This document shows, in pieces, positions 48,007 through 59,431 of a stretch of 59,637 bases of DNA. Position 1 is the first letter of the stretch; each line of letters begins with the position of its first letter. The stretch is from an uncultured Clostridia bacterium (GTDB lineage Bacteria > Bacillota > Clostridia > Lachnospirales > Lachnospiraceae), in contig CANDNA010000021.1 of assembly GCA_947385955.1 (NCBI GenBank), forward strand, positions 1 to 59,637. The letters run 5' to 3'. The notes below the pieces were generated by a model. It was not told the origin of the DNA and did no database searches. It saw only the letters and a list, made by a program, of their open reading frames with translations. The position numbers were made by a program, and so were the translations under genes.

Positions 48007-48063
48007 ATAGAATATATGGAATAAAGGATACTGGAAAATAATGTGCAGGAGGAGATGCGCAGA

Positions 48064-48930
48064 TTGGCGAAAAAAAGTTTGAAAAAGCTGGCCGCCGAGT
48101 ATCATCTGGAAGAATACGATGAAGAGATGCAGAAAGCCATCCTTCTTCAGCTTAAGCGAAGGGCCGGAAGAAGGAAGCTGATCACACTGTTGTGTACAGT
48201 ACTGGCCATAGGCAGCCTGGGATATTTTACCGGGTATTATTATCTGGCGGACCGGTCAGGGAATCAGTTTGAAGAGCTGTCGGAACTGAAAGACAAAGAG
48301 CCGGTAAACAGGAGACAGACTGCAAAGGCAGCAAAGGAAGAAGAGGTTCCGGAGATACTGGATGAATATAAAAATTTATATATTAAGAACAGAAGTATAA
48401 TAGGATGGCTGAAAATTGACGATACAAATATAAACTATCCTGTGATGCAGTCAAAGGATTCGGAATATTACCTGACACACAACTTTAATCAGGAATATGA
48501 CAGGAATGGTTCTATTTTTATGGATCCGGCCTGTGATGTGCTGAAGCCCAGCACCAATCTGATTCTTTACGGGCATCATATGCGGTCCGGCAATATGTTC
48601 GGAGATCTGGATAAGTATGAATCAAGGGAATATATGGAGGAACATGCCACAATTGAATTTGATACTCTGTATGAAAAGGGCACCTGGAAGGTTATGTATG
48701 TATTCCGGGATAAACTGCGTCAGGATACAGAGATTACCTTTAAGTATTATCAGTTCATTGAAGCCAATTCAGCAGAGGAGTTTGCGTCCAATATGAATGC
48801 AATGGCGCAGATGTCTTTTTATGATACGGGGGTAAAGGCATCTTACGGCGATCAGCTGCTGACATTGTCCACATGTGACAGCAGGGAAGAGGACGGCAGG
48901 TTTGTCGTAGTGGCAAAGCGTGTGGAGTAA
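48064..48930 (+). CDS. srtB: Class B sortase
   Basis: Sortases attach surface proteins to the cell wall. The 289-residue product has a membrane anchor (about 35-60, LITLLCTVLAIGSLGYFTGY), the class B blocks IIGWLKIDDTNINYPVMQ and YYLTHNFNQEYDRNGSIFMD, catalytic H171 in LYGHHMRSGNMFGDL, C271 in LSTCDS and R279 in GRFVVVAKR. Start: TTG 48064 stands 9 bases after GGAGGAG; ATG 48055 would touch that site and GTG 48043 has none. A large protein with an SPQTG sorting motif follows 28 bases later. Confidence 0.93.
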   Translation: MAKKSLKKLAAEYHLEEYDEEMQKAILLQLKRRAGRRKLITLLCTVLAIGSLGYFTGYYYLADRSGNQFEELSELKDKEPVNRRQTAKAAKEEEVPEILDEYKNLYIKNRSIIGWLKIDDTNINYPVMQSKDSEYYLTHNFNQEYDRNGSIFMDPACDVLKPSTNLILYGHHMRSGNMFGDLDKYESREYMEEHATIEFDTLYEKGTWKVMYVFRDKLRQDTEITFKYYQFIEANSAEEFASNMNAMAQMSFYDTGVKASYGDQLLTLSTCDSREEDGRFVVVAKRVE

Positions 48931-48958
48931 GGGCATGTTTCAGAGGAGAGCGAATAAA

Positions 48959-51900
48959 ATGGCAAAGACAGAAAAAAAGAAAAACAGAAAACTGCGCAGG
49001 CGGATACGTCGTACTACGGCAGTTGTTATGCTGATTACGTCGATTATTGTGGCGGCGATCCCGGTGCCTGAAAATGCAGCGGCTCCGCGGGCGGTGGAGA
49101 AAGATCCGGTTACCGGTGAGATTACCAAAGTGGTCAGAAATCCGGAAGAATATGCCTATGATTATAATATTGGCGCTGACGGTCAGGCAACGGCCAGTCC
49201 GTCAGGTGTGGCCATCGGTCAGTATACGGGTACCGATGGCAAGGTATTGGATACGACCAAGCCGGGAGATTATGTTCTGAATTCCGAACTGTTCCCTGGC
49301 TACAAGCTTGACAAGGTGGCTGATCCGGCTGATAAAGGCTATACAGTGCTGGAGGTTAACGGAGGCTGGTCATATCAGTGGCAGTTTGAGTATTATCCCA
49401 ATGGCAGCGGCGCCAATAATATCACCATTTCCAAATACAATGCCACTTATCCTTCTGAGGAAGTCAATCTGCGGAGAAATATCCCTACGGCGTATGCCCA
49501 GTATGATGAAGACGATATTTTAGACTATAAAGATGATCTGAAGAACGGGCCCGATGTGGTTTTGCTGAATCCCACGGACGGAGATTATCAGTTTTTTGAA
49601 AAGTGGTTTAAGACAGAATATGACACTTATGTAAAAGAGTACAATGCTGCTGCGGCTGCAAATCCGCCTTCTTATCCCACCCATTCTTTCAGTATGAAAA
49701 ATTTATCGGATGAAGCGGTATACGAGTATTTTTGCTGCCAGAATTCCACTCCGCCTGCTCTGACAGGAAACAGGTCCAGTCTGAAAGGATGTACGCTTGT
49801 CAGAGTGGAGTTCCCGAAAGATGACGGAAGCCCTTCTGACTGGAAATATATTCCCAGATGGATTCAGGAGGATAACCCTTATCCGGATACCGGTATCCAG
49901 AAGGACAGCAACGGCTTTATCTGTGGTAGTTTTGTGGCTCCTGTATATGCCATCGGCAATGGGGCGTTTACGGATGTAAAGAATGTTAAGACTATTTATC
50001 TGCCGGAATCCCTTAAGTTTATCGGAGATAAGGCATTTGTAGGCTGTTCCAACATGCAGCGGTTTGAAGCCAACAACCTGGCTGCCGTTGGGAATGCGGC
50101 ATTCAAAGGATGTTCCGCACTGGATACTTTTGTGGTGCAGAACCCGATGGAGCGGATTGGTGCGGAAGCGTTTTACAGGACCGGCCTGCAGGAATTTAAT
50201 ATCACTTCCAGTATTTCCCTGATTGGTCCGGGCGCATTTGCCGAGTGCCAGAATCTTTCCAAACTGAGCTTTTCTCCTGGCGTACATACCAGTGCCTGCG
50301 AGATTGGGAAATATGCTTTTTATAATTGTACCGGGTTAAAAGAGATATCCTGGGGAAATAACAGCAGCAATGTAAAGAGTCTGGGGTATGCTGCCTTTGC
50401 CATGCAGGCAGGCGGGGATTCCCTGCAGGAGTTCCAGTTCCCCGAGATTGCCAGCGGAGATGATCTGGGTGATTATTGCCTTGCCGGACGCAGCAATCTG
50501 AAAAAGGTGACAATGCCTTCGGAGCGGTTTGGCAGAAATGCGGATGTGAAACTTCCCAGCGGTCTGTTTATGGATTGTTTCAGTCTGGAGCAGGTGGTTT
50601 TCCCGGATGACGGTTCTTATTCCTGCGGAAGGATTACTTTTGAAGAGGATTTGTTTTATGAAGTGTCCAATCCCGACTTTTATGTCAGGGGGCCGGAACT
50701 GAAAAATGCAGGCAATATCCGTTCGGAAGCGGATCCCCGTATGTCAACGTGGAGTGCGATATCCATTGCTCATGAAGGGAAAACCGGCATTCCTTATGTA
50801 TATAACAGGAACGGTACAGATTATTTTGAAATCTGTCAGGACAATATGATTATGCTGATTGACGGAAACGGAAAACTTTCGTCCTGTTCGTTCCATCCCA
50901 GTATCAGAGAAAATCCGGATAAAAAGAAGAATCTGGCCGGAAATCTGACCATTCCCGCTGAAGTTGCAGGAACACCGGTAAGAGTGGTGGCGAAAGACAG
51001 CTTTGGCGACGGGAATGAACCGAATGATATTAAGAAATATATTAAGAGCCTGACGTTCCCGGATGACGGAGAACTGACTACGATTGAGGACGGGGTATTC
51101 GAAGGCTGTCCCAAGCTGGAGAAAGTCGTAATCGGCAATACGATGAAAGACATCGGAGCCAATGCATTTGCCAACTGCGGTACTGATATTGATGCGCCCA
51201 GCAGTGTGGTACTGGAAGTGGTATTCCATTCTCCCAAAGGAGGCGACTATGCCTCATTTAAGATTGGCCAGGATGCCTTTACCACAGGCGGAGAGCCGAT
51301 GATTTTCAGCGGTGATATTGTAAAAGGGTATGCACCCTTTGAGCATGCCATGAATCCGTCCACAAAGATCACTGAGGATGGGCTTCGTGTCTGCTATAAA
51401 TCGTTAAGTCCGCAGAATCTTATCGTAATGCAGAACAATGCGGAAAACGGAATCGGAGCAACCAATGCACCCACACTGGTGGCATATCCTCACTATGAAG
51501 ATGTGGATACGGACAATGCAGACTATATTGCCTCCATTGAGAAAGCATTTTATGACCAGTACGGAGTTGACCGGTATGATGAGGAGCGGAAAAAGTATAA
51601 TGATGCCATAGCAGCAGGCCAGTCAAAGGAGGATCTGGAAAAGGAAGGCATCTATGGTCCCTGGATTGTGGCAGAGTATGATGCGGACGGCAATAAGATA
51701 AAACCCGGATACTTTGATGATTATCCGTACAGTCTTCTGGATTCCTATGAAAATAACGGCAATCCGGAATATATGAGGCCGTGGAAACAGATTACGGCTC
51801 CCGGTATTGAAATTGTGGAAGCCACTTTGAAAATTGATATTCCGGAAGGAATTACATCGATTGATGCGGCAGATTATTTTGACAATACGCTGTACAACGG

Positions 51901-54013
51901 TATGTGCATTTCCAGTTATACGTGCCTGCAGAATGCAAGAAACAAATATATGAAGGTGGATGACGGCACGGAAGAAAATGTGGTCAAGGGTCTGTTCAGC
52001 GGATGGCTGGAAGAGCCGGAACTGGATGATACAAAGCAGCAGTTTAAAAAGGGGAATGACTATATCCAGAGTGTAACCATGCACAGTGTGGCTTATCTGC
52101 CGGATTATGCATTTGATAACTGCGAAAATCTGGAGTCCGTTTCACTGGGAGCGGGGATGAAGGATATCGGTACGGCGCCTTTCAGAGGATGTACCAAGCT
52201 GACCGGTGTAGGCGGCAATGAGAAGTTTATCGGAGAAAACGGCATTGTATATTCTGTCAATGCAGACGGCAAATACATCATTGAAGAGTGTCTGCCGGCA
52301 AGAGGTTCTCTGGTGGGTTCTCCGGCAGTCAATACGGAAAACGACCCGCTGCTTGCCAAAGTGGGATATCTTAAGGAAGGGGCGTTTGAGGACTGTGATG
52401 AAATTTCAGAGGTGGATCTGTCAGGAACGGACGGTGTGGATACGATTCCCCAGAAAACATTCCGGGATTGTGAACATCTGACCAGCGTCATCCTGCCTGA
52501 ATCGGTACATTCCATTCAGGATGAGGCATTTGCCAATATTGATCGTGCTACTGTGGAGATCAGAGGCCGTGAAGTGGACATCGCTACCAATGCTTTTGAA
52601 CATTTGCCCACGGTTACGATTTATACGCACAGGGACAGTGCCGCCGCGAGATATGCGGATTATCATCAGATCAATCTGAAACTGATGGAGGAGACCCATA
52701 AGGTCACTTTTGTGGACTATGACGGGACTGTGCTGGGAATAGAGTTTGTGGATGACGGGAAAGATGCGGTCCCGCCGCAGAATCCGGAGAGGAACGGATA
52801 CCGTTTTACCGGCTGGAGCGGAAGCTATCAGAGTGTGTATGAGGATCGGACCATAATCGCACAGTATATACCAAATACAGGAGATCCGGCAGATCCCAAT
52901 AACCCGAATAATAAACCTGGCGGCGACGGCAGCGGCGGGAATGGGAACAACGGAAATAACAGCAACAATAACAACAGCAATAACAGCAACAACAGTTCCA
53001 GCAGCAGTGATGATGATGACGATGACGACGATGATGATGACGACGATGACGATGATGAGATCCATACCGTAACAGTCATCAACGGAATGGGAAGCGGACG
53101 CTACAGAGAGGGCCGTACCGTAACCATTACGGCCAATCCGGCTCCGGAGGGACAGAGTTTTCATTACTGGACAACAGAATCCGAGAATGTGGTTCTGGCC
53201 AATGCACAGAATTCCACCACTACCTTTACGATGCCTGATAACCGGGTGACGGTAACTGCCAATTACAAAGAGGGTACCGGCGGCAGCGGCACCACATACA
53301 GTACGACAGCGCCTGTTGTCAGCACTGGCGGCGGCAATGGCTCCGGAGGCGGCAGCGGTTCGGGAGATGGCAGCGGTACCGGCACAGACGGTACCGGTGA
53401 TGGCACCACTACGGTATCTGATGGATTGCCTGGCGGCAATACCAGAGTGGTGATTTCCAAACCTGGTATTTCCAATACCGGTGTGGCATCTGCGACAGTA
53501 GAAGGTTCAGACGACGACTTTGTGGTGATGATTACACAGAGTGATATAGCAGAGCAGGAGGTACAGAACGCATTGCTGAAGGAATTTGGAAGTCTGGACA
53601 ATATTGTCTATACGGCAATGGACATTTCCCTGTATGATTCTACGGGAACAGTGCCGATATCGGATGTATCAGGACTCCGGGTGAATATTACCATGCCGCT
53701 TCCTGATGCACAGATCAGTTATGGCGGCAACAACAGGGCTGCAGGCGTTGTGGACGGCAGTCTGGATAAGCTGGATGCAAGATATAATACCATTAACGGT
53801 GTAGACTGTATTACCTTTACAGCAACACACTTTTCGCCCTATACAATCTATGTGGATACGGCAAACCTGACAGCGTCAACGGATATGTCTCCGCAGACAG
53901 GTGATCCGATTCACCCGAAATGGTTTCTGGCATTGGGGCTTGCCTGCCTCTCTGTACTCCTGTTTATGAAACGGGATGAAAAGCCAAGAGCCAAAGCAAA
54001 AGCAGCAGTATAA
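48959..54013 (+). CDS. Large BspA-like leucine-rich surface protein with SPQTG sorting signal
   Basis: The 1684-residue product has a signal peptide (about 17-45), leucine-rich BspA/LRR_5 repeats (about 315-740 and 1035-1220; units like IGDKAFVGCSNMQRFE), a Listeria-Bacteroides-type repeat (about 1248-1305, FTGWSGSYQSVYEDRTIIAQ), an Asn/Ser-rich then 16-Asp stretch (about 1351-1366), a divergent InlB-like repeat (about 1367-1437), a Gly/Ser spacer, and at 1644 the sorting motif SPQTGD, a hydrophobic helix and a Lys/Arg-rich tail. SPxTG is a motif used by class B sortases such as that of C. difficile, and a sortase B gene is directly upstream. ATG 48959 follows GGAGAG at 9 bases. Confidence 0.9.
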   Translation: MAKTEKKKNRKLRRRIRRTTAVVMLITSIIVAAIPVPENAAAPRAVEKDPVTGEITKVVRNPEEYAYDYNIGADGQATASPSGVAIGQYTGTDGKVLDTTKPGDYVLNSELFPGYKLDKVADPADKGYTVLEVNGGWSYQWQFEYYPNGSGANNITISKYNATYPSEEVNLRRNIPTAYAQYDEDDILDYKDDLKNGPDVVLLNPTDGDYQFFEKWFKTEYDTYVKEYNAAAAANPPSYPTHSFSMKNLSDEAVYEYFCCQNSTPPALTGNRSSLKGCTLVRVEFPKDDGSPSDWKYIPRWIQEDNPYPDTGIQKDSNGFICGSFVAPVYAIGNGAFTDVKNVKTIYLPESLKFIGDKAFVGCSNMQRFEANNLAAVGNAAFKGCSALDTFVVQNPMERIGAEAFYRTGLQEFNITSSISLIGPGAFAECQNLSKLSFSPGVHTSACEIGKYAFYNCTGLKEISWGNNSSNVKSLGYAAFAMQAGGDSLQEFQFPEIASGDDLGDYCLAGRSNLKKVTMPSERFGRNADVKLPSGLFMDCFSLEQVVFPDDGSYSCGRITFEEDLFYEVSNPDFYVRGPELKNAGNIRSEADPRMSTWSAISIAHEGKTGIPYVYNRNGTDYFEICQDNMIMLIDGNGKLSSCSFHPSIRENPDKKKNLAGNLTIPAEVAGTPVRVVAKDSFGDGNEPNDIKKYIKSLTFPDDGELTTIEDGVFEGCPKLEKVVIGNTMKDIGANAFANCGTDIDAPSSVVLEVVFHSPKGGDYASFKIGQDAFTTGGEPMIFSGDIVKGYAPFEHAMNPSTKITEDGLRVCYKSLSPQNLIVMQNNAENGIGATNAPTLVAYPHYEDVDTDNADYIASIEKAFYDQYGVDRYDEERKKYNDAIAAGQSKEDLEKEGIYGPWIVAEYDADGNKIKPGYFDDYPYSLLDSYENNGNPEYMRPWKQITAPGIEIVEATLKIDIPEGITSIDAADYFDNTLYNGMCISSYTCLQNARNKYMKVDDGTEENVVKGLFSGWLEEPELDDTKQQFKKGNDYIQSVTMHSVAYLPDYAFDNCENLESVSLGAGMKDIGTAPFRGCTKLTGVGGNEKFIGENGIVYSVNADGKYIIEECLPARGSLVGSPAVNTENDPLLAKVGYLKEGAFEDCDEISEVDLSGTDGVDTIPQKTFRDCEHLTSVILPESVHSIQDEAFANIDRATVEIRGREVDIATNAFEHLPTVTIYTHRDSAAARYADYHQINLKLMEETHKVTFVDYDGTVLGIEFVDDGKDAVPPQNPERNGYRFTGWSGSYQSVYEDRTIIAQYIPNTGDPADPNNPNNKPGGDGSGGNGNNGNNSNNNNSNNSNNSSSSSDDDDDDDDDDDDDDDDEIHTVTVINGMGSGRYREGRTVTITANPAPEGQSFHYWTTESENVVLANAQNSTTTFTMPDNRVTVTANYKEGTGGSGTTYSTTAPVVSTGGGNGSGGGSGSGDGSGTGTDGTGDGTTTVSDGLPGGNTRVVISKPGISNTGVASATVEGSDDDFVVMITQSDIAEQEVQNALLKEFGSLDNIVYTAMDISLYDSTGTVPISDVSGLRVNITMPLPDAQISYGGNNRAAGVVDGSLDKLDARYNTINGVDCITFTATHFSPYTIYVDTANLTASTDMSPQTGDPIHPKWFLALGLACLSVLLFMKRDEKPRAKAKAAV

Positions 54014-54463: not shown

Positions 54464-54736
54464 TTGTTACGAGTAAGAAAACAGGTATATTGCAGCGACA
54501 GATATACCGGAAAAGGAATCACAGTAGCGATTCTGGATACCGGAATTTCCCGGCATCCGGATTTCGGCAGCCGCATCCTGGGGTTTACGGATTTTGTCAA
54601 TGGCAGGGTGGGGCTGTATGATGATGATACGCATGGGACCCATGTGTATGTCAGAAAACACAAGATTGAGAAATGTGAAATGGGGACAAGTCTGGTATGT
54701 ATCAGGCTTGTTTTACATTGTAACATGATGAGATAA
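54464..54736 (+). pseudogene. Subtilase (S8) gene fragment cut after HGTH
   Basis: The first 60 residues match the start of a clostridial subtilisin-like protease: YTGKGITVAILDTGISRHPD with the catalytic Asp and DDDTHGTHV with the catalytic His. Directly after HGTHV, where AG(I/L) should follow, the sequence changes to an unrelated stretch that stops 30 codons later; the Asn and Ser regions are absent, so it cannot be active. The TTG start at 54464 has GGGAG 6 bases upstream. The break at about 54646 marks the left edge of foreign DNA. Confidence 0.75.
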
Positions 54737-54744
54737 GAGAAGCA

Positions 54745-55647
54745 ATGAGAAAGCTGAAAACAGAGGTCATTCACAATCTGATAGCGGCCCATCCAACCAG
54801 TGCGGAGGTGGATTTTATCGTATGGCTTTCCAGATACCAGAATGACGCAGGGATGGTCAGAGGAGTCTACTATAAATCCGTCTGTAAAGACCTGCAGATA
54901 GCGCCCCAGAGCTTCTACAACGTGATCAGAAGCCTGGAGGAAAAAGAAATCATAAAGGTAAGCAAGGACAATGCTTACTTTGGCGATTGGGATATCGAGA
55001 TCATGGGGAATGATTTTTCAAAGGCATCCCTGCGCCCGGGGAAGGCGGCAGAAAATTACCTGGATATGGGGAAGGATGTATTCTATGATCCGGATTTCTT
55101 TGCCCTGAAGGCAAACGAAAAGCTGATGACAATGCTTTATATGATCTATGGCAGCGCTGGCAGCGGCCGTTACCATATCGGGACTCAGAACTTTTTTGAA
55201 AAGTATACGGGCCTTTTCCGGGTAAAAAAGCGTGCCCTGCAGAACTATCTGAACAGGATCCGGAAATTCTTTTCCATTGGCGTGAAGGACAGACAGTTCT
55301 GGATCAGGCCCCTGCAGAAAAGCCAGGGCAGAGAGAGCGGCCATACAGACAGATCAGAACGGGCAAAGCAGATCGCGGGAAGCCTCTGCAGAAGATTCCG
55401 CCTGGAAAATCCCGTACAGGCCCTTTCGGCCATCCGGGAACTGGTAGAGCAATATACTTATAATATCAGTGCAGATTTGGAACCGGTCTTTATGGAAAGC
55501 ATCAAAGACCTGCTGAGCAGGAGGAACGGCTCTGCAAACCCGCGCAGATGGAAAAGGAGGGAGATCAACAAAAAATTCCTGCACAAAATCTTTCTGGAGC
55601 ACCTTCCGAAAGAAGCGCTTTCACAGGGAATGATATCGCCTGTCTGA
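54745..55647 (+). CDS. Winged-helix-like protein of unknown function
   Basis: A 300-residue basic, soluble protein. The N-terminal region (KTEVIHNLIAAHPTSAEVDF, KSVCKDLQIAPQSFYNVIRS, LEEKEIIKVSKDNAYFGDWD) looks like a winged helix-turn-helix, and the whole layout resembles plasmid-type replication initiators, but I cannot name a family. The C-terminus is Arg/Lys-rich. It lies at the presumed edge of accessory DNA, followed 11 bases later by hairpin repeats. An imperfect dyad ACAAGTCTG/CAGGCTTGT lies just upstream (54686-54711). Confidence 0.65.
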   Translation: MRKLKTEVIHNLIAAHPTSAEVDFIVWLSRYQNDAGMVRGVYYKSVCKDLQIAPQSFYNVIRSLEEKEIIKVSKDNAYFGDWDIEIMGNDFSKASLRPGKAAENYLDMGKDVFYDPDFFALKANEKLMTMLYMIYGSAGSGRYHIGTQNFFEKYTGLFRVKKRALQNYLNRIRKFFSIGVKDRQFWIRPLQKSQGRESGHTDRSERAKQIAGSLCRRFRLENPVQALSAIRELVEQYTYNISADLEPVFMESIKDLLSRRNGSANPRRWKRREINKKFLHKIFLEHLPKEALSQGMISPV

Positions 55648-55657
55648 CCGGCTTTTT

Positions 55658-55777
55658 ATAACCTGTCACCAGCCGCCAGGCTGCTGACCTGCGCGCACAT
55701 CAGTGCGCTTCCTTATGATAACCTGTCACCAGCCGTGAGGCTGCTGACCTGCGCGCACATCAGTGCGCTTCCTTATC
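55658..55777. repeat. Two-copy 60-bp tandem repeat with paired hairpins
   Basis: A 60-bp unit starts at 55658 and 55718. Each unit holds two hairpins: CAGCC-loop-GGCTG and GCGCAC-ATCA-GTGCGC. The first loop differs between copies (GCCA versus GTGA) while the stem is unchanged. A short piece of the unit start (ATAACCTGTC) recurs near 58745. Confidence 0.85.
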
Positions 55778-55812
55778 ATACCATAAATTTGATATTTTCA
55801 GATCAGAAGAAC

Positions 55813-55839: not shown

Positions 55840-56347
55840 TTGTCATGAAATTGCAGGAGCCGGTTTCACTGTGGATAAAAATGAGCTTTGTTCTAATTTT
55901 ACAACATAAAAGAGAAGAGGCAGATTCCAGTTTTGCAACACAGAAAAAGAAAGCATTCCAGATTTACAGCAAAGTCAGCAAAATAATTCTAAAAACAGGA
56001 CAGAAAACAGGGGACAGCATTCCAAAATCATGCATGTATGAAACGTAAGAAAACACAGGAATTATGGGAGTTTCAGATCAAAAACGGAGGGGAGCATATT
56101 TTCTCTCCTATATTGGTTTTATAAATTGCCATCCTGGCAATATACTTCAGCTGCGCAGGGCGCTTTGAAAGCAAGTTTCACCTGTTACAAAGACAATCTT
56201 TCTTGTCCCCGGATATTTTTTCCCCTATAATATGTTTAGATAATGGATAAGGAGAGATGGGGGAGATTATACGGGAGGAAACAAAAAGACCGGAAAGTAG
56301 AAGCAAGTTTTACAGTACCTGTATGGAAGCGATAGTGGGAGGCGACT
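55840..56347. other. Gene-poor AT-rich stretch before the STAND ATPase
   Basis: No convincing gene. A possible 67-codon frame at 55845-56048 is Lys-rich with no ribosome site and is not credited. The stretch 56205-56245 is AT-rich with TATAATATG (56226-56234), a plausible -10 for the next gene, but no good -35 is seen at 17 bases. Confidence 0.5.
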
Positions 56348-58598
56348 ATGTGGAAGTGGATAAAAAAACAGGGAACTAAAATCATAAATAAATTGTTTTT
56401 TACAAATATAGGCGGGGATTATGTCGGCCGGGATAAGATTGTACATGAGCATTACGAATATAAAGAGAAGGTGTTTGAAAACCTTACCCCGATGGCCGAT
56501 GCAAAACCGGTCTGGTACTTTACAGGTCGGGAAACGGAACTTGACAGCCTGCGTAAGGGGATTGGCCAGGGTGAGAAAGCGGTGCTTGTCAGCGGGATGG
56601 GAGGGATCGGCAAGACACAGATCTGCAGGACCCTGTACCAGGAATATCTGACCGGGAAAGGGAAGGGGCTGTTCAGCCACATCGGGTATTTTACCTATGA
56701 TACAGATTTAGGGACGACACTTGTAAACGGGATGGGGATCCATATTTCTTCAGATGAGGAGGAGAACCGGGAGGCGGCATGGGGAAAACTGTATGACGTA
56801 TCCAGGACAGGCCGTCTTTTGCTGTTTGTGGATAACTTTAACAACTCCCTCCAGGCTGATCCGGATATGGAACGGCTATGCAGGCTGCAGGGGGCGCTGG
56901 TGGTCAGCTCCAGGAGAAAATCCCTGGGGGATTTTCTGAAACCTTATCCAATCGGCTTTTTGTCGATGGAGGAATGCCGGAAAATCTATGAAAAGATACA
57001 GAAAGAGGGCGGGAGAATCGTCCATGAGGAAGAAACAGGGAGCCTTTGTTATATCATTGAAAAGCTGGCCGGGTTCCATACGATTACGGTTGAGTTCCTT
57101 TCTTTCCTGGCCAGGACAAAGCACTGGGATGCTGACAGGCTGAGGCAGGAGCTGGAGCAGAAAGGATTCCGCCTGCAGTTCCATAAAGATGGAGAGAAGG
57201 CAAAAAATATCCAGGAATCTTATGAAGCATTGTATGATTTGTCGGAGCTGTCAGAAGGGGAGAAGAATATCCTGGAGGCATTTTCTGTATTCCCGTATCT
57301 GCCCTTAGATTTTGAAACACTGAACCGGTGGCTTTTGAAGGATGCCGGGGCCGGTGAAGAGGATGATATCATTGAGGGCCTGTATCAGAAGGGGTGGCTG
57401 CAGTTCTTTGGGGAGCAGGACAGTTATGCGATGCACCCGGTGTTTGCAAAGTTTATTTATGATAAGTGTAAGCCTGCGGCAGAGGGGCATATGGGGATGA
57501 TAGAGGCATGTGAGGATGATATCAGGATACCGAAGGATGGATATGTGTTGGAATGTCAGAAATATCTGCCATTTGCAATGGAATTGATGAATAAGATAAA
57601 GATAGACGAAGGGGAGGTATGGAGAGGGTTTTCAGGGCATATAGCGAAGTCGCTTAGTTATGCAGGAATGTATAAAAGTGCCGAGAGGATTTATGAAGAA
57701 ATCAAAAGGAACTGTGAGGGAGAGTTGGGGGAGAGGCATCCGGATACGGAGGGCAGTTATAATAATCTGGCCTATGTATATGTCCGACAGGGAAAGTATA
57801 GGGAAGCGGAAGAATTATTCAGGAAGGCGCTGAAGATAAGAGAAGAAATAGTGAGAGAGAGACATCCGGGTACAGCGAGCAGTTATGATAATCAGGCATC
57901 TTTATATGCCATCCAGGGAAAATATAAGAAAGCGGAAGAATTATACAGGAAAGCACTGGAGATAAGAAAAGAAATAGTGGGAGAGAGACATCCGGATACA
58001 GCGAGCAGTTATAATAATCTGGCATCTTTATATGCCAGCCAGGAAAAATATAAGGAAGCGGAAGAATTATACAGGAAAGCACTGAAGATAAGAGAAGAAA
58101 TGCAGGGGGAGAGGCATCCGGATACGGAGGGCAGTTATAATAATCTGGCCTATGTATATGCCATCCAGGGGAAGTATAAGGAAGCGGAAGAATTATACAG
58201 GAAGGCGCTGAAGATAAGTGGAGAAATACTGGGGGAGAGACATCTGTCTACTGCGGACAGTTATGATAATCTAGCCTATGTATATGATAGCCAAGGAAAG
58301 TATAAGGAAGCGGAAGAATTATATAGAAAGGCACTGAAAATAAGAGAAGAAATGCAGGGGGGGGAGGCATCCGGATACAGCGTTTAGTTATCATAATCTG
58401 GCCTATGTATATGCCAGCCAGGGAAGGTATAAGGAAGCGGAAGAATTATATACCAAAGCATTAAAAATAAGTGAAGATATGTTAGGAAAAAACCATCCAA
58501 CTACCGCAATTTTCACTAAGAATCTGGCATCTTTGTATCAAAGGCAGGGAAGGCATGAGGAAGCGGAAAAATTACTTCAGAGAATCCCGGAGATTTAA
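56348..58598 (+). pseudogene. NB-ARC/STAND ATPase with TPR sensor, frame broken at a G8 tract
   Basis: The frame from ATG 56348 (GGGAGG upstream) encodes 679 residues and stops at 58387. The N-terminus has NIGGDYVGRDKI, a short motif often seen in bacterial STAND proteins, then Walker A GMGGIGKTQ (about 83-91), Walker B LLLFVDNFNN (about 161) and LVVSSRR. From about 435 come TPRs with a 42-residue (126-bp) period (NNLAYVYVRQGKYREAEELF). At 58357-58364 eight G replace a seven-base segment of sister repeats, a +1 shift. In the next frame about 76 further codons continue two TPR units to a stop at 58596. Intact, it would be about 750 residues, of the type found in immunity systems. May be phase-variable, decayed or a sequencing error. 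Confidence 0.85.
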
Positions 58599-58986: not shown

Positions 58987-59265
58987 ATGGCTGGTTCTAC
59001 TACGAATATCAGTATCCGTATGGATTCGGATTTGAAAACACAGGCCGATGCTTTGTTTTGGGAACTTGGCATGAGCTTATCCACAGCATTTAATATCTTT
59101 GTTCGTCAATCCCTCCGGGAGGGGAGGATTCCTTTTGACATTTCTTTGAATCAACCCAACAGGGAAACCATTGCGGCTATGCTAGAAGTGGAAAGGATTG
59201 CAAAAGATCCGTCTGTGAAGGGATATACAGATTTGGATGAATTATTTGCAGATTTAAAGTCATGA
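58987..59265 (+). CDS. dinJ: RelB/DinJ-family antitoxin (orphan)
   Basis: A 92-residue ribbon-helix-helix antitoxin: STTNISIRMDSDLKTQADAL, FWELGMSLSTAFNIFVRQSL and the C-terminal toxin-binding part ending KGYTDLDELFADLKS. The usual YafQ/RelE toxin should start in the overlapping ATGA at 59262, but that frame gives only 31 codons with no toxin features. So the antitoxin stands alone. AAGGGAGATGGTTGT precedes ATG 58987. Confidence 0.9.
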   Translation: MAGSTTNISIRMDSDLKTQADALFWELGMSLSTAFNIFVRQSLREGRIPFDISLNQPNRETIAAMLEVERIAKDPSVKGYTDLDELFADLKS

Positions 59266-59337
59266 GAAAAACAAAAAGAAATCCGTCGTCTGAGAAACGA
59301 AAACGAATTTTTGAAGAGGCAAGCGTTTTTTTGCTGA
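59266..59337 (+). pseudogene. IS3-family OrfA C-terminal remnant
   Basis: Directly after the dinJ stop and in the same frame, 23 codons read EKQKEIRRLRNENEFLKRQA, then FFC and a stop. The EIRRLRNENEFLK heptads are the leucine-zipper-like end of IS3-family transposase OrfA. Neither the helix-turn-helix part nor OrfB is present. It probably replaced the toxin gene. Confidence 0.65.
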
Positions 59338-59431
59338 CAGCTGTCAACCACCTATAGAAGGCAGAGAATGATGTTCCTTGCCATAAAAACTGATCAAGGG
59401 GGAAATTTTTTTCTATTGCCGGATGTTAAAC

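What the first reader, a model, noticed from the sequence alone, without database searches (positions are those of the whole stretch)
56348..58598. STAND ATPase with TPR repeats switched off by a G8 homopolymer
The gene has an NB-ARC-type ATPase core, the GDYVGRDK motif and near-identical 126-bp TPR units. At 58357-58364 eight G replace the seven-base GGGGGAG seen in a sister repeat, shifting the frame and truncating the protein; about 76 codons of good TPR sequence continue in the shifted frame. A G-run of this length is prone to slippage, so the gene could be ON/OFF phase-variable. It lies in accessory DNA next to a broken toxin-antitoxin locus and IS debris, as expected for a defence-type gene. 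No separate effector domain is visible.
Basis: partly seen in the sequence, partly recalled or inferred. Interest (0 to 1): 0.8.

Follow-up and report, generated by a model that had tools for sequence, protein, structure and literature searches.

The report
Decayed bacterial NLR missing its partner
A broken copy of a bacterial immune-receptor-like gene turns out to belong to a two-gene system in which a tiny membrane protein (or a TIR-domain protein) and the receptor carry the same short matching motif, which looks like a prion-style signalling link in gut bacteria; the on/off switch that was suspected is not supported.

Summary
The G8 run at 58357-58364 and the frame loss are real. The gene is a STAND/NB-ARC-like ATPase with kinesin-light-chain-like TPRs. 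The G8 tract is not above chance, and of 35 NLR stretches scanned only the window's has a G run of 7 or more, so phase variation is not supported. The copy is decayed rather than switched.

The missing effector is a separate gene just upstream. Two other loci in the same genome have an open 59-66-aa gene (one predicted membrane helix) whose C-terminus repeats the receptor's N-terminal motif. In the window a 150-bp gap relative to one of them leaves only the motif.

Of 31 close relatives (18 titled Lachnospiraceae, two Akkermansia), 18 have the tiny gene, 8 a TIR gene carrying the motif, 4 a domain fused to the receptor, 1 is unassigned. Effector and receptor motifs match within loci more than by shuffle (p=5e-5), although within the tiny-gene class this does not survive control for receptor kinship. 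The tiny gene is under purifying selection and matched no protein-family library.

Best reading: a variant of bacterial amyloid-signalling (BASS) NLR/effector pairs with a new minimal membrane effector. Amyloid formation, killing and anti-phage function are inferred, not shown.

The parts
56203..56231 (+). sigma-70-like promoter (TTGTCC-17-TATAAT) ahead of the effector relic; the same stretch is present ahead of the open effector gene on contig C14
   Evidence: consensus scan; alignment with C14 (consensus match only)
56259..56300 (+). relic of the upstream effector gene: only the C-terminal motif GGDYTGGNKKTGK and stop remain; start codon, membrane helix and linker are gone (150-bp gap relative to C14, near 56261)
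56335..56379 (+). second, possibly older motif relic VGGDYVEVDKKTGN-stop in another frame, overlapping the NLR start by 32 bp, as effector genes do in other loci
   Evidence: overlaps of 23-32 bp in 15 of 17 loci
56348..58387 (+). NLR-like STAND ATPase with TPRs, truncated (679 aa)
56414..56437 (+). receptor-side motif GDYVGRDK
56471..57130 (+). block with no mismatch to the C8 paralogue (11 blocks of 60 bp), flanked by diverged ends: gene conversion or collapsed assembly repeat
56594..56617 (+). P-loop GMGGIGKT
   Evidence: invariant in the 6 rows of A3
57726..58450 (+). 126-bp TPR array (5.7 copies); nearest solved relatives by sequence are kinesin light chain TPRs
58357..58364 (+). G8 run at which the frame is lost
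58362..58598 (+). remaining TPR sequence in the other frame, ending in a stop
58990..59265 (+). RelB-type antitoxin; partner toxin frame broken just downstream (neighbour, not part of the system)

Best explanation
The window holds a decayed copy of a two-gene receptor/effector system. The intact form is: (1) a 59-73-aa protein with one N-terminal predicted membrane helix and a C-terminal motif of about 20 residues; (2) an overlapping or following NLR whose N-terminus carries the same motif, then a STAND/NB-ARC-like ATPase and a TPR sensor. Proposed mechanism: the TPR array senses a ligand (inferred, probably phage- or element-derived); the ATPase oligomerises (inferred from the STAND class); the clustered N-terminal motifs template the matching motif of the effector (motif pairing shown; templating inferred; amyloid-like form inferred from resemblance); the clustered membrane helices damage the membrane, or in sister systems TIR domains are activated, and the cell dies or stops growing (inferred). 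In the window copy the effector gene is reduced to its motif and the NLR frame is lost at a G8 run. A complete open pair lies on contig C8, and parts of a third on C14 and the end of C8.
For: Small genes upstream of the NLR with matching motifs on C14 and C8 in the same genome and in same-genus G008. Among 31 close relatives: tiny gene 18, TIR gene 8, fused domain 4, unassigned 1. Motif match within loci against shuffles: n=27 pairs, 38.4 vs 26.4, p=5e-5; within effector class, 24 pairs after dropping 3 near-duplicates, p=5e-5. Partial Mantel controlling for receptor-core identity r=0.39, p=2e-4, n=24. The residue after the motif G tracks effector type on both sides (Fisher 4e-6 and 9e-6; 25 of 27 partners agree; no control for kinship). 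Effector type needs 7 changes on the receptor tree, at least 3 forced by supported branches, for example L060 (TIR) beside L059/L061 (tiny gene), all from one assembly. Tiny gene: pN/pS 0.20 in the helix part, pN<pS in 153 of 153 pairs of 18 genes; best 19-residue hydropathy 1.85-2.44 in 19 members of the family, 1.27 in L130. A distant viral-contig pair (L130/L131) has a 59-aa putative membrane protein and NLR sharing KQNQKxGxNSxxIQVxG, like the BASS3-like peptide AEB69175_5_29 whose FTIR spectrum is called typical of aggregates (PMC8086366 passages). Some more distant cyanobacterial relatives pair the NLR with larger upstream proteins, one a caspase-fold protein, sharing other motifs.
Against: No experiment shows amyloid, toxicity or defence. 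Within the tiny-gene class alone the motif match does not survive control for receptor relatedness (partial r=0.04, p=0.29, n=18; without the window's genus r=0.11, p=0.18, n=15), and the TIR class alone is borderline (p=0.053, n=6). In local alignment a receptor's own effector is the best-scoring in only 2 of 17 loci. The system is rare in samples: 1 of 391 genomes of the class (the own genome only) has a tiny gene at E<=1e-4. One relative (L046) has the receptor motif but no tiny gene directly upstream, and L065's effector lacks a clear motif. The four tiny proteins scanned have no Pfam match, so none to RHIM or EAD models. The BASS1-10 models could not be tested (paper not held).
Confidence: 0.6

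Rival explanations
1. Phase-variable contingency gene: the G8 tract slips and switches the receptor on and off.
For: A G run of eight within an otherwise open TPR array; one relative (L067) has lost its frame at an A7 run.
Against: Tract below chance expectation (1 vs 4.84); no G run of 7 or more in the other 34 NLR stretches scanned; the effector gene of this copy is deleted, so switching the receptor would not give a working pair in cis.
Confidence: 0.07
2. Assembly artefact: near-identical copies were partly collapsed, and the window joins the 5' end of one copy to the TPR end of another, or the G8 itself is a read or assembly error.
For: No mismatch to the C8 copy over 56471-57130; contigs C14 and C8 end inside NLR sequence; draft assembly of 53 contigs.
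Against: Outside that block the window copy differs from C8 (about 10% over the whole 2228-bp match) and from C14 (about 5% over two pieces of 914 and 484 bp, 9% over 201 bp), so its two ends are distinct sequences; the effector deletion lies outside the identical block.
Confidence: 0.2
3. The tiny protein is not an executioner but a membrane anchor, inhibitor or antitoxin-like partner of the receptor, and the shared motif is an ordinary docking strand, not an amyloid.
For: A single short helix carries no recognisable toxic domain (no match); no structure or assay was available.
Against: In the same receptor family the same position is taken by TIR proteins, a caspase-fold protein and fused phosphoesterases, which look like effectors; the effector-plus-motif arrangement is that of described amyloid NLR pairs (PMC7889193 passages).
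Confidence: 0.3
4. The truncated window receptor still works, as a short sensor that uses the C14 effector in trans.
For: TPR hit numbers vary widely among relatives; the window receptor's first 35 aa are identical to those of the C14 copy.
Against: The C-terminal end of the array, present in the C8 copy and the C8-end fragment, is lost; the local effector is deleted.
Confidence: 0.12

Closest known systems
BASS / Bell-NLR bacterial amyloid-signalling pairs (Dyrka et al. 2020, not held; seen only through passages of PMC7889193, PMC8086366, PMC12261475)
   Same: Neighbouring or overlapping genes, NLR with a short N-terminal motif, effector with the same motif, more than one effector type (Bell, CHAT, TIR in PMC7889193).
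   Different: Effector here is a 59-73-aa single-helix protein, or a TIR with the motif at its N-terminus; motif is roughly NG/GG-x-Y-x-G-R/G-D/N; [quoted passage not shown] Membership in BASS1-10 not tested.
RHIM / BASS3-like signalling motifs
   Same: C14 effector reads VQIGGDYTGGN, close to the V/I-Q-V/I-G core (the RHIM core is recalled; the BASS3 peptide with VQVGDGN is printed in PMC8086366); the L130 pair resembles the BASS3-like peptide of Methanothrix.
   Different: Most members listed lack the core tetrad; no Pfam match of the four tiny proteins scanned.
HET-S/NWD2 and HELL-type fungal signalosomes
   Same: NLR N-terminal motif and membrane-acting partner with the same motif (PMC7889193 passages).
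   Different: No sequence kinship tested; effector here far smaller (sizes of the fungal ones recalled).
Bacterial STAND/NLR anti-phage proteins (Avs, bNACHT; recalled and seen in listings)
   Same: STAND-type ATPase as switch with a C-terminal sensor.
   Different: PADLOC gives TPR models, a TPR-region hit to PDC-M71B and weak partial hits such as Avs4 (E=0.0022, residues 60-100); the effector acts in trans through a motif.

Membership tests
STAND/NB-ARC NLR-like receptor | P-loop NTPase core of NB-ARC/STAND type | tested here: inconclusive
   P-loop present; NB-ARC 14.7 bits (cut-off 23.5) and AAA_16 29.6 (32.6) for the window; relative L064 passes NB-ARC, 27.5
STAND/NB-ARC NLR-like receptor | C-terminal repeat sensor | tested here: met
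   TPR_10 220.8 bits, TPR_12 199.1 bits; kinesin light chain TPRs in the PDB
BASS-type amyloid NLR/effector pair | effector gene next to or overlapping the NLR gene | tested here: met
   26 of 31 close relatives (18 tiny, 8 TIR), plus the C8 copy and the 5' end of the C14 copy; in the window only relics
BASS-type amyloid NLR/effector pair | same short motif at the NLR N-terminus and on the effector | tested here: met
   27 pairs, shuffle p=5e-5; not shown beyond receptor kinship within the tiny-gene class
BASS-type amyloid NLR/effector pair | match to the BASS1-10 profiles | not tested
   models and the 2020 paper not held
BASS-type amyloid NLR/effector pair | motif forms a seeding-competent amyloid | not testable with these tools
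   needs peptides; only resemblance of L130 to a peptide with an aggregate-type FTIR spectrum
BASS-type amyloid NLR/effector pair | Bell domain effector (other effector types are also described) | tested here: inconclusive
   no Bell model was available to test; the tiny effector is short and has no Pfam match
phase-variable contingency locus | tract over-represented or conserved among relatives | tested here: not met
phase-variable contingency locus | tract length varies in the population | not testable with these tools
   no reads
known anti-phage system in PADLOC | match to a named system over most of its length | tested here: not met
   TPR-region and weak partial hits for the receptors, weak TIR hits (ThsB, SAVED-TIR) for the TIR protein, none for the two tiny proteins

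The most novel reading that the evidence does not exclude
A new family of prion-like signalling motifs runs a swappable NLR alarm in gut bacteria that are not known as filamentous, with an exceptionally small NLR-driven executioner (about 60-70 residues: one membrane helix, a linker and the motif); effector-plus-motif cassettes are exchanged in front of a conserved ATPase core whose TPR sensor diversifies by repeat recombination.
Probability: 0.4. Interest if true: 0.75.

Novelty: new variant of a known kind. Interest (0 to 1): 0.58.

Why it matters
Amyloid-linked NLR pairs have been described mainly in filamentous bacteria and discussed together with multicellularity (PMC7889193 passages). 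The same logic in Lachnospiraceae and Akkermansia, with a minimal membrane partner and repeated effector swapping, would broaden that view and offers a compact test case: short peptides for seeding and one 66-aa gene for toxicity in a laboratory strain. It also shows how a decayed receptor gene can be misread as a switch.

Tried and rejected
Phase variation at the G8 tract: rejected as best reading. A conserved homopolymer among relatives: none found (my first scan had skipped runs in loci without TPR hits). The frame change in L053 lies near a 100-N gap and was dropped. A fused effector in the window gene: none seen. Plasmid and phage records: 5 plasmid records match the window core at 23-26% identity, none close; no match for L055 in phages or for L130 in plasmids. 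Tiny-gene profile across the class: 1 of 391, the own genome. Families: no match for the tiny proteins scanned, four in Pfam, two in NCBIfam, two in PADLOC, three in PHROGs. PDB by sequence for the tiny family at E<=1: nothing. Structure prediction: switched off, so no fold search was made. Papers: searches showed in their listings nothing that names this motif or a tiny membrane partner of an NLR; I read passages of four papers only, and most subscription papers are not in the library, so this is weak evidence of absence. Rows dropped: L061, L074, L056 as near-duplicates in the deduplicated tests; L065 has no usable effector motif and was not paired; L046, L057, L063, L066, L068 have no separate effector pair and were not paired; the viral pairs L124-L131 were not put into the pair tests; L061 and L065 were left out.

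Full report
What is there. The window is the whole of contig C21 of a 53-contig draft. ORF 56348-58387 codes for 679 aa with a P-loop, a weak NB-ARC/AAA_16 match below the Pfam cut-offs and strong TPR matches. The frame is lost at the G8 of 58357-58364, and TPR sequence continues in another frame to 58598. The 126-bp array has 5.7 copies at 84% matches. The TPR part is nearest to kinesin light chain TPRs in the PDB by sequence.

The tract is not a likely switch. One G8 was found where shuffles give 4.84. In 35 NLR stretches (window, C8, C8-end, L018, L045-L075) only the window has a G run of 7 or more, and none a C run of 7 or more. Of 23 relatives with detectable TPRs, 4 showed a frame change; L053 has a 100-N gap, the only gap among the 35, and was set aside, leaving 3 of 22 (L048, L056, L067), one of them at an A7 run. 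Decay by scattered lesions fits better than a conserved switch, though slippage cannot be excluded without reads.

Copies in the same genome. Contig C8 carries an open 791-aa paralogue. Contig C14 begins inside the N-terminus of another copy, and the end of C8 carries the C-terminal part of one; that these two are one gene is inferred. The window and C8 copies have no mismatch over 56471-57130 but differ on both sides, which means recent gene conversion or a collapsed repeat; the joining of the window's two ends is therefore not certain.

The partner gene. Upstream of the C14 receptor a small ORF ends in VQIGGDYTGGNKKTGK, and upstream of the C8 receptor another ends in SVGGDIVGRDKNVGK; both start with ELFNII.GVCS..GLAVS.F.ASKVIK. 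The receptors start with NIGGDYVGRDK and NVSGDYVGRDK. The same kind of pair occurs in same-genus G008. In the window a 150-bp gap relative to C14 leaves only the motif and stop. A further motif relic overlaps the receptor start in another frame, just where effector genes end in other loci (overlap 23-32 bp in 15 of 17 loci; L054 gave 107 from the start chosen, L130 does not overlap).

Relatives. A scan of a collection of 84,980 species genomes with an NLR alignment gave 64 loci; it needs exact matches to short back-translated patterns, so it is a lower bound. 31 (L045-L075) are treated here as close. By title: 18 Lachnospiraceae, 2 Roseburia, 3 Eubacterium, 2 Hungatella, 1 Clostridiaceae, 1 Clostridium, 2 unnamed bacteria, 2 Akkermansia. 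Upstream of the receptor: tiny gene in 18; TIR gene with the motif at its N-terminus in 8 (Pfam TIR_2 met in all seven scanned: L045, L056, L060, L069, L072, L075, and L041, which is the unnamed-genome copy of L064; L074 not scanned); N-terminally fused domain in 4 (L057, L063, L066 calcineurin-like phosphoesterase by eye, Pfam met for L057, the one scanned; L068 unassigned); none recognised in 1 (L046). Six of 12 viral-contig loci repeat the pattern (L124 TIR_2 by Pfam; L125 TIR-like by eye; L126-L129 tiny gene). L129 shows the same tiny gene and receptor start as L051 of E. plexicaudatum. Two more (L130, L131, which look like the same locus) pair a 59-aa putative membrane protein with an NLR through a different, BASS3-like motif; its hydropathy maximum is only 1.27, so its membrane helix is less sure. 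In genome samples the system is rare: 7 of 61 near relatives have any NLR match at E<=0.001, most of them weak; 9 of 397 family genomes have a tiny-profile match at E<=0.01, several weak; 9 of 392 order genomes match the NLR alignment at E<=1e-30; 1 of 391 class genomes has the tiny gene at E<=1e-4. The own genome is counted in each.

Tests of pairing. Within-locus motif similarity exceeds shuffles: all 27 pairs p=5e-5; 24 pairs within class p=5e-5; tiny class 18 p=5e-5; 15 without the window's genus p=3e-4; TIR 6 p=0.053. With receptor-core identity controlled: 24 pairs r=0.39 p=2e-4; without the genus, 21 pairs, r=0.495 p=2e-4; tiny class 18 r=0.04 p=0.29; 15 without the genus r=0.11 p=0.18 (for C14, whose core is missing, the window core stood in). 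So the match of motif to effector type is solid, while finer matching within the tiny class is not shown beyond kinship. In whole local alignment a receptor's own effector ranks first in 2 of 17 loci and in the top three in 10 of 17. The residue after the conserved G is G in 8 of 8 TIR effectors and 7 of 8 of their receptors, but not G (R or H) in 18 of 19 tiny effectors and 19 of 19 of their receptors.

Swapping. On a tree of 33 receptor cores, effector type needs 7 changes for the three labels together; supported branches force at least 3 for the tiny and for the TIR label; many inner branches are weak (15 of 30 open). L060 (TIR) groups with L059 and L061 (tiny), all from one assembly; L056 (TIR) groups with L047 and L049 (tiny).

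The tiny gene looks real: pN/pS 0.20 in the helix part and 0.37 outside the last 12 columns, pN<pS in 153 of 153 pairs of 18 genes (synonymous sites near saturation). No match in Pfam, NCBIfam, PADLOC or PHROGs for the members scanned.

Wider kin. The pairing scan of more distant loci tried 44: 2 gave no NLR ORF, L130 was not scorable by that script, 41 were scored. Six cyanobacterial ones share a motif between the NLR N-terminus and an upstream protein (L091, L099, L101, L102, L104, L106; local scores 50-108, above all 200 shuffles of the best segment, which had been picked as the best of several), one of them caspase-fold (L102), as does L110 of the same order (57). The short proteins of L091, L101, L104 and L106 look like the Bell proteins of the published pairs, by recall of that architecture only. 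Most other loci in that scan showed no clear pairing; L076, L092 and L098 also beat their shuffles but look like composition or short chance matches.

Reading. The anatomy and pairing are shown; oligomerisation, templating, amyloid form, membrane damage and defence are inferred from the STAND class and from described NLR amyloid pairs (PMC7889193, PMC8086366, PMC12261475, passages only). Relaxase and mobilisation genes beside the C8 copy (Pfam Relaxase, NikA-like, MobC), and places in contigs listed as viral, fit a mobile defence or inter-element conflict role. The window copy itself is best called a decayed copy.

Noticed in passing
54464-54736 and L013:1742-3238: Both copies of the element's left flank (winged-helix-like gene 54745-55647 by eye, 95.5% identical DNA on C14) follow subtilase-like genes that look cut short (by eye), in the window right after HGTHV; the element may favour subtilase genes.
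   Followed up: partly
55658-55780: Two 60-bp direct repeats with terminator-like stems, also found at about 90% identity on contig C4 (L015:4326-4467): a dispersed repeat.
   Followed up: partly
58990-59357: RelB antitoxin open, partner toxin frame broken after a few codons; an open RelB/YafQ pair (Pfam) lies beside the C8-end copy (L012:10375-10964).
   Followed up: partly
L012:4568-6821: Relaxase and mobilisation genes (Pfam Relaxase, NikA-like, MobC) just beyond the open receptor copy, suggesting an integrative mobilisable element.
   Followed up: partly
L057, L063, L066, L068: Calcineurin-like phosphoesterase fused to the N-terminus of the same receptor family (Pfam for L057, the others by eye), with the motif region weakened; L068 has another fused N-terminal domain with no Pfam match above cut-off and no motif.
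   Followed up: partly
48043-54013: Sortase-like gene followed by a 1697-aa surface-protein-like ORF with LRR-like repeats and a long Asp run (by eye).
   Followed up: no
L067:5093-5099: Receptor frame of a locus titled uncultured Hungatella is lost at an A7 run.
   Followed up: yes
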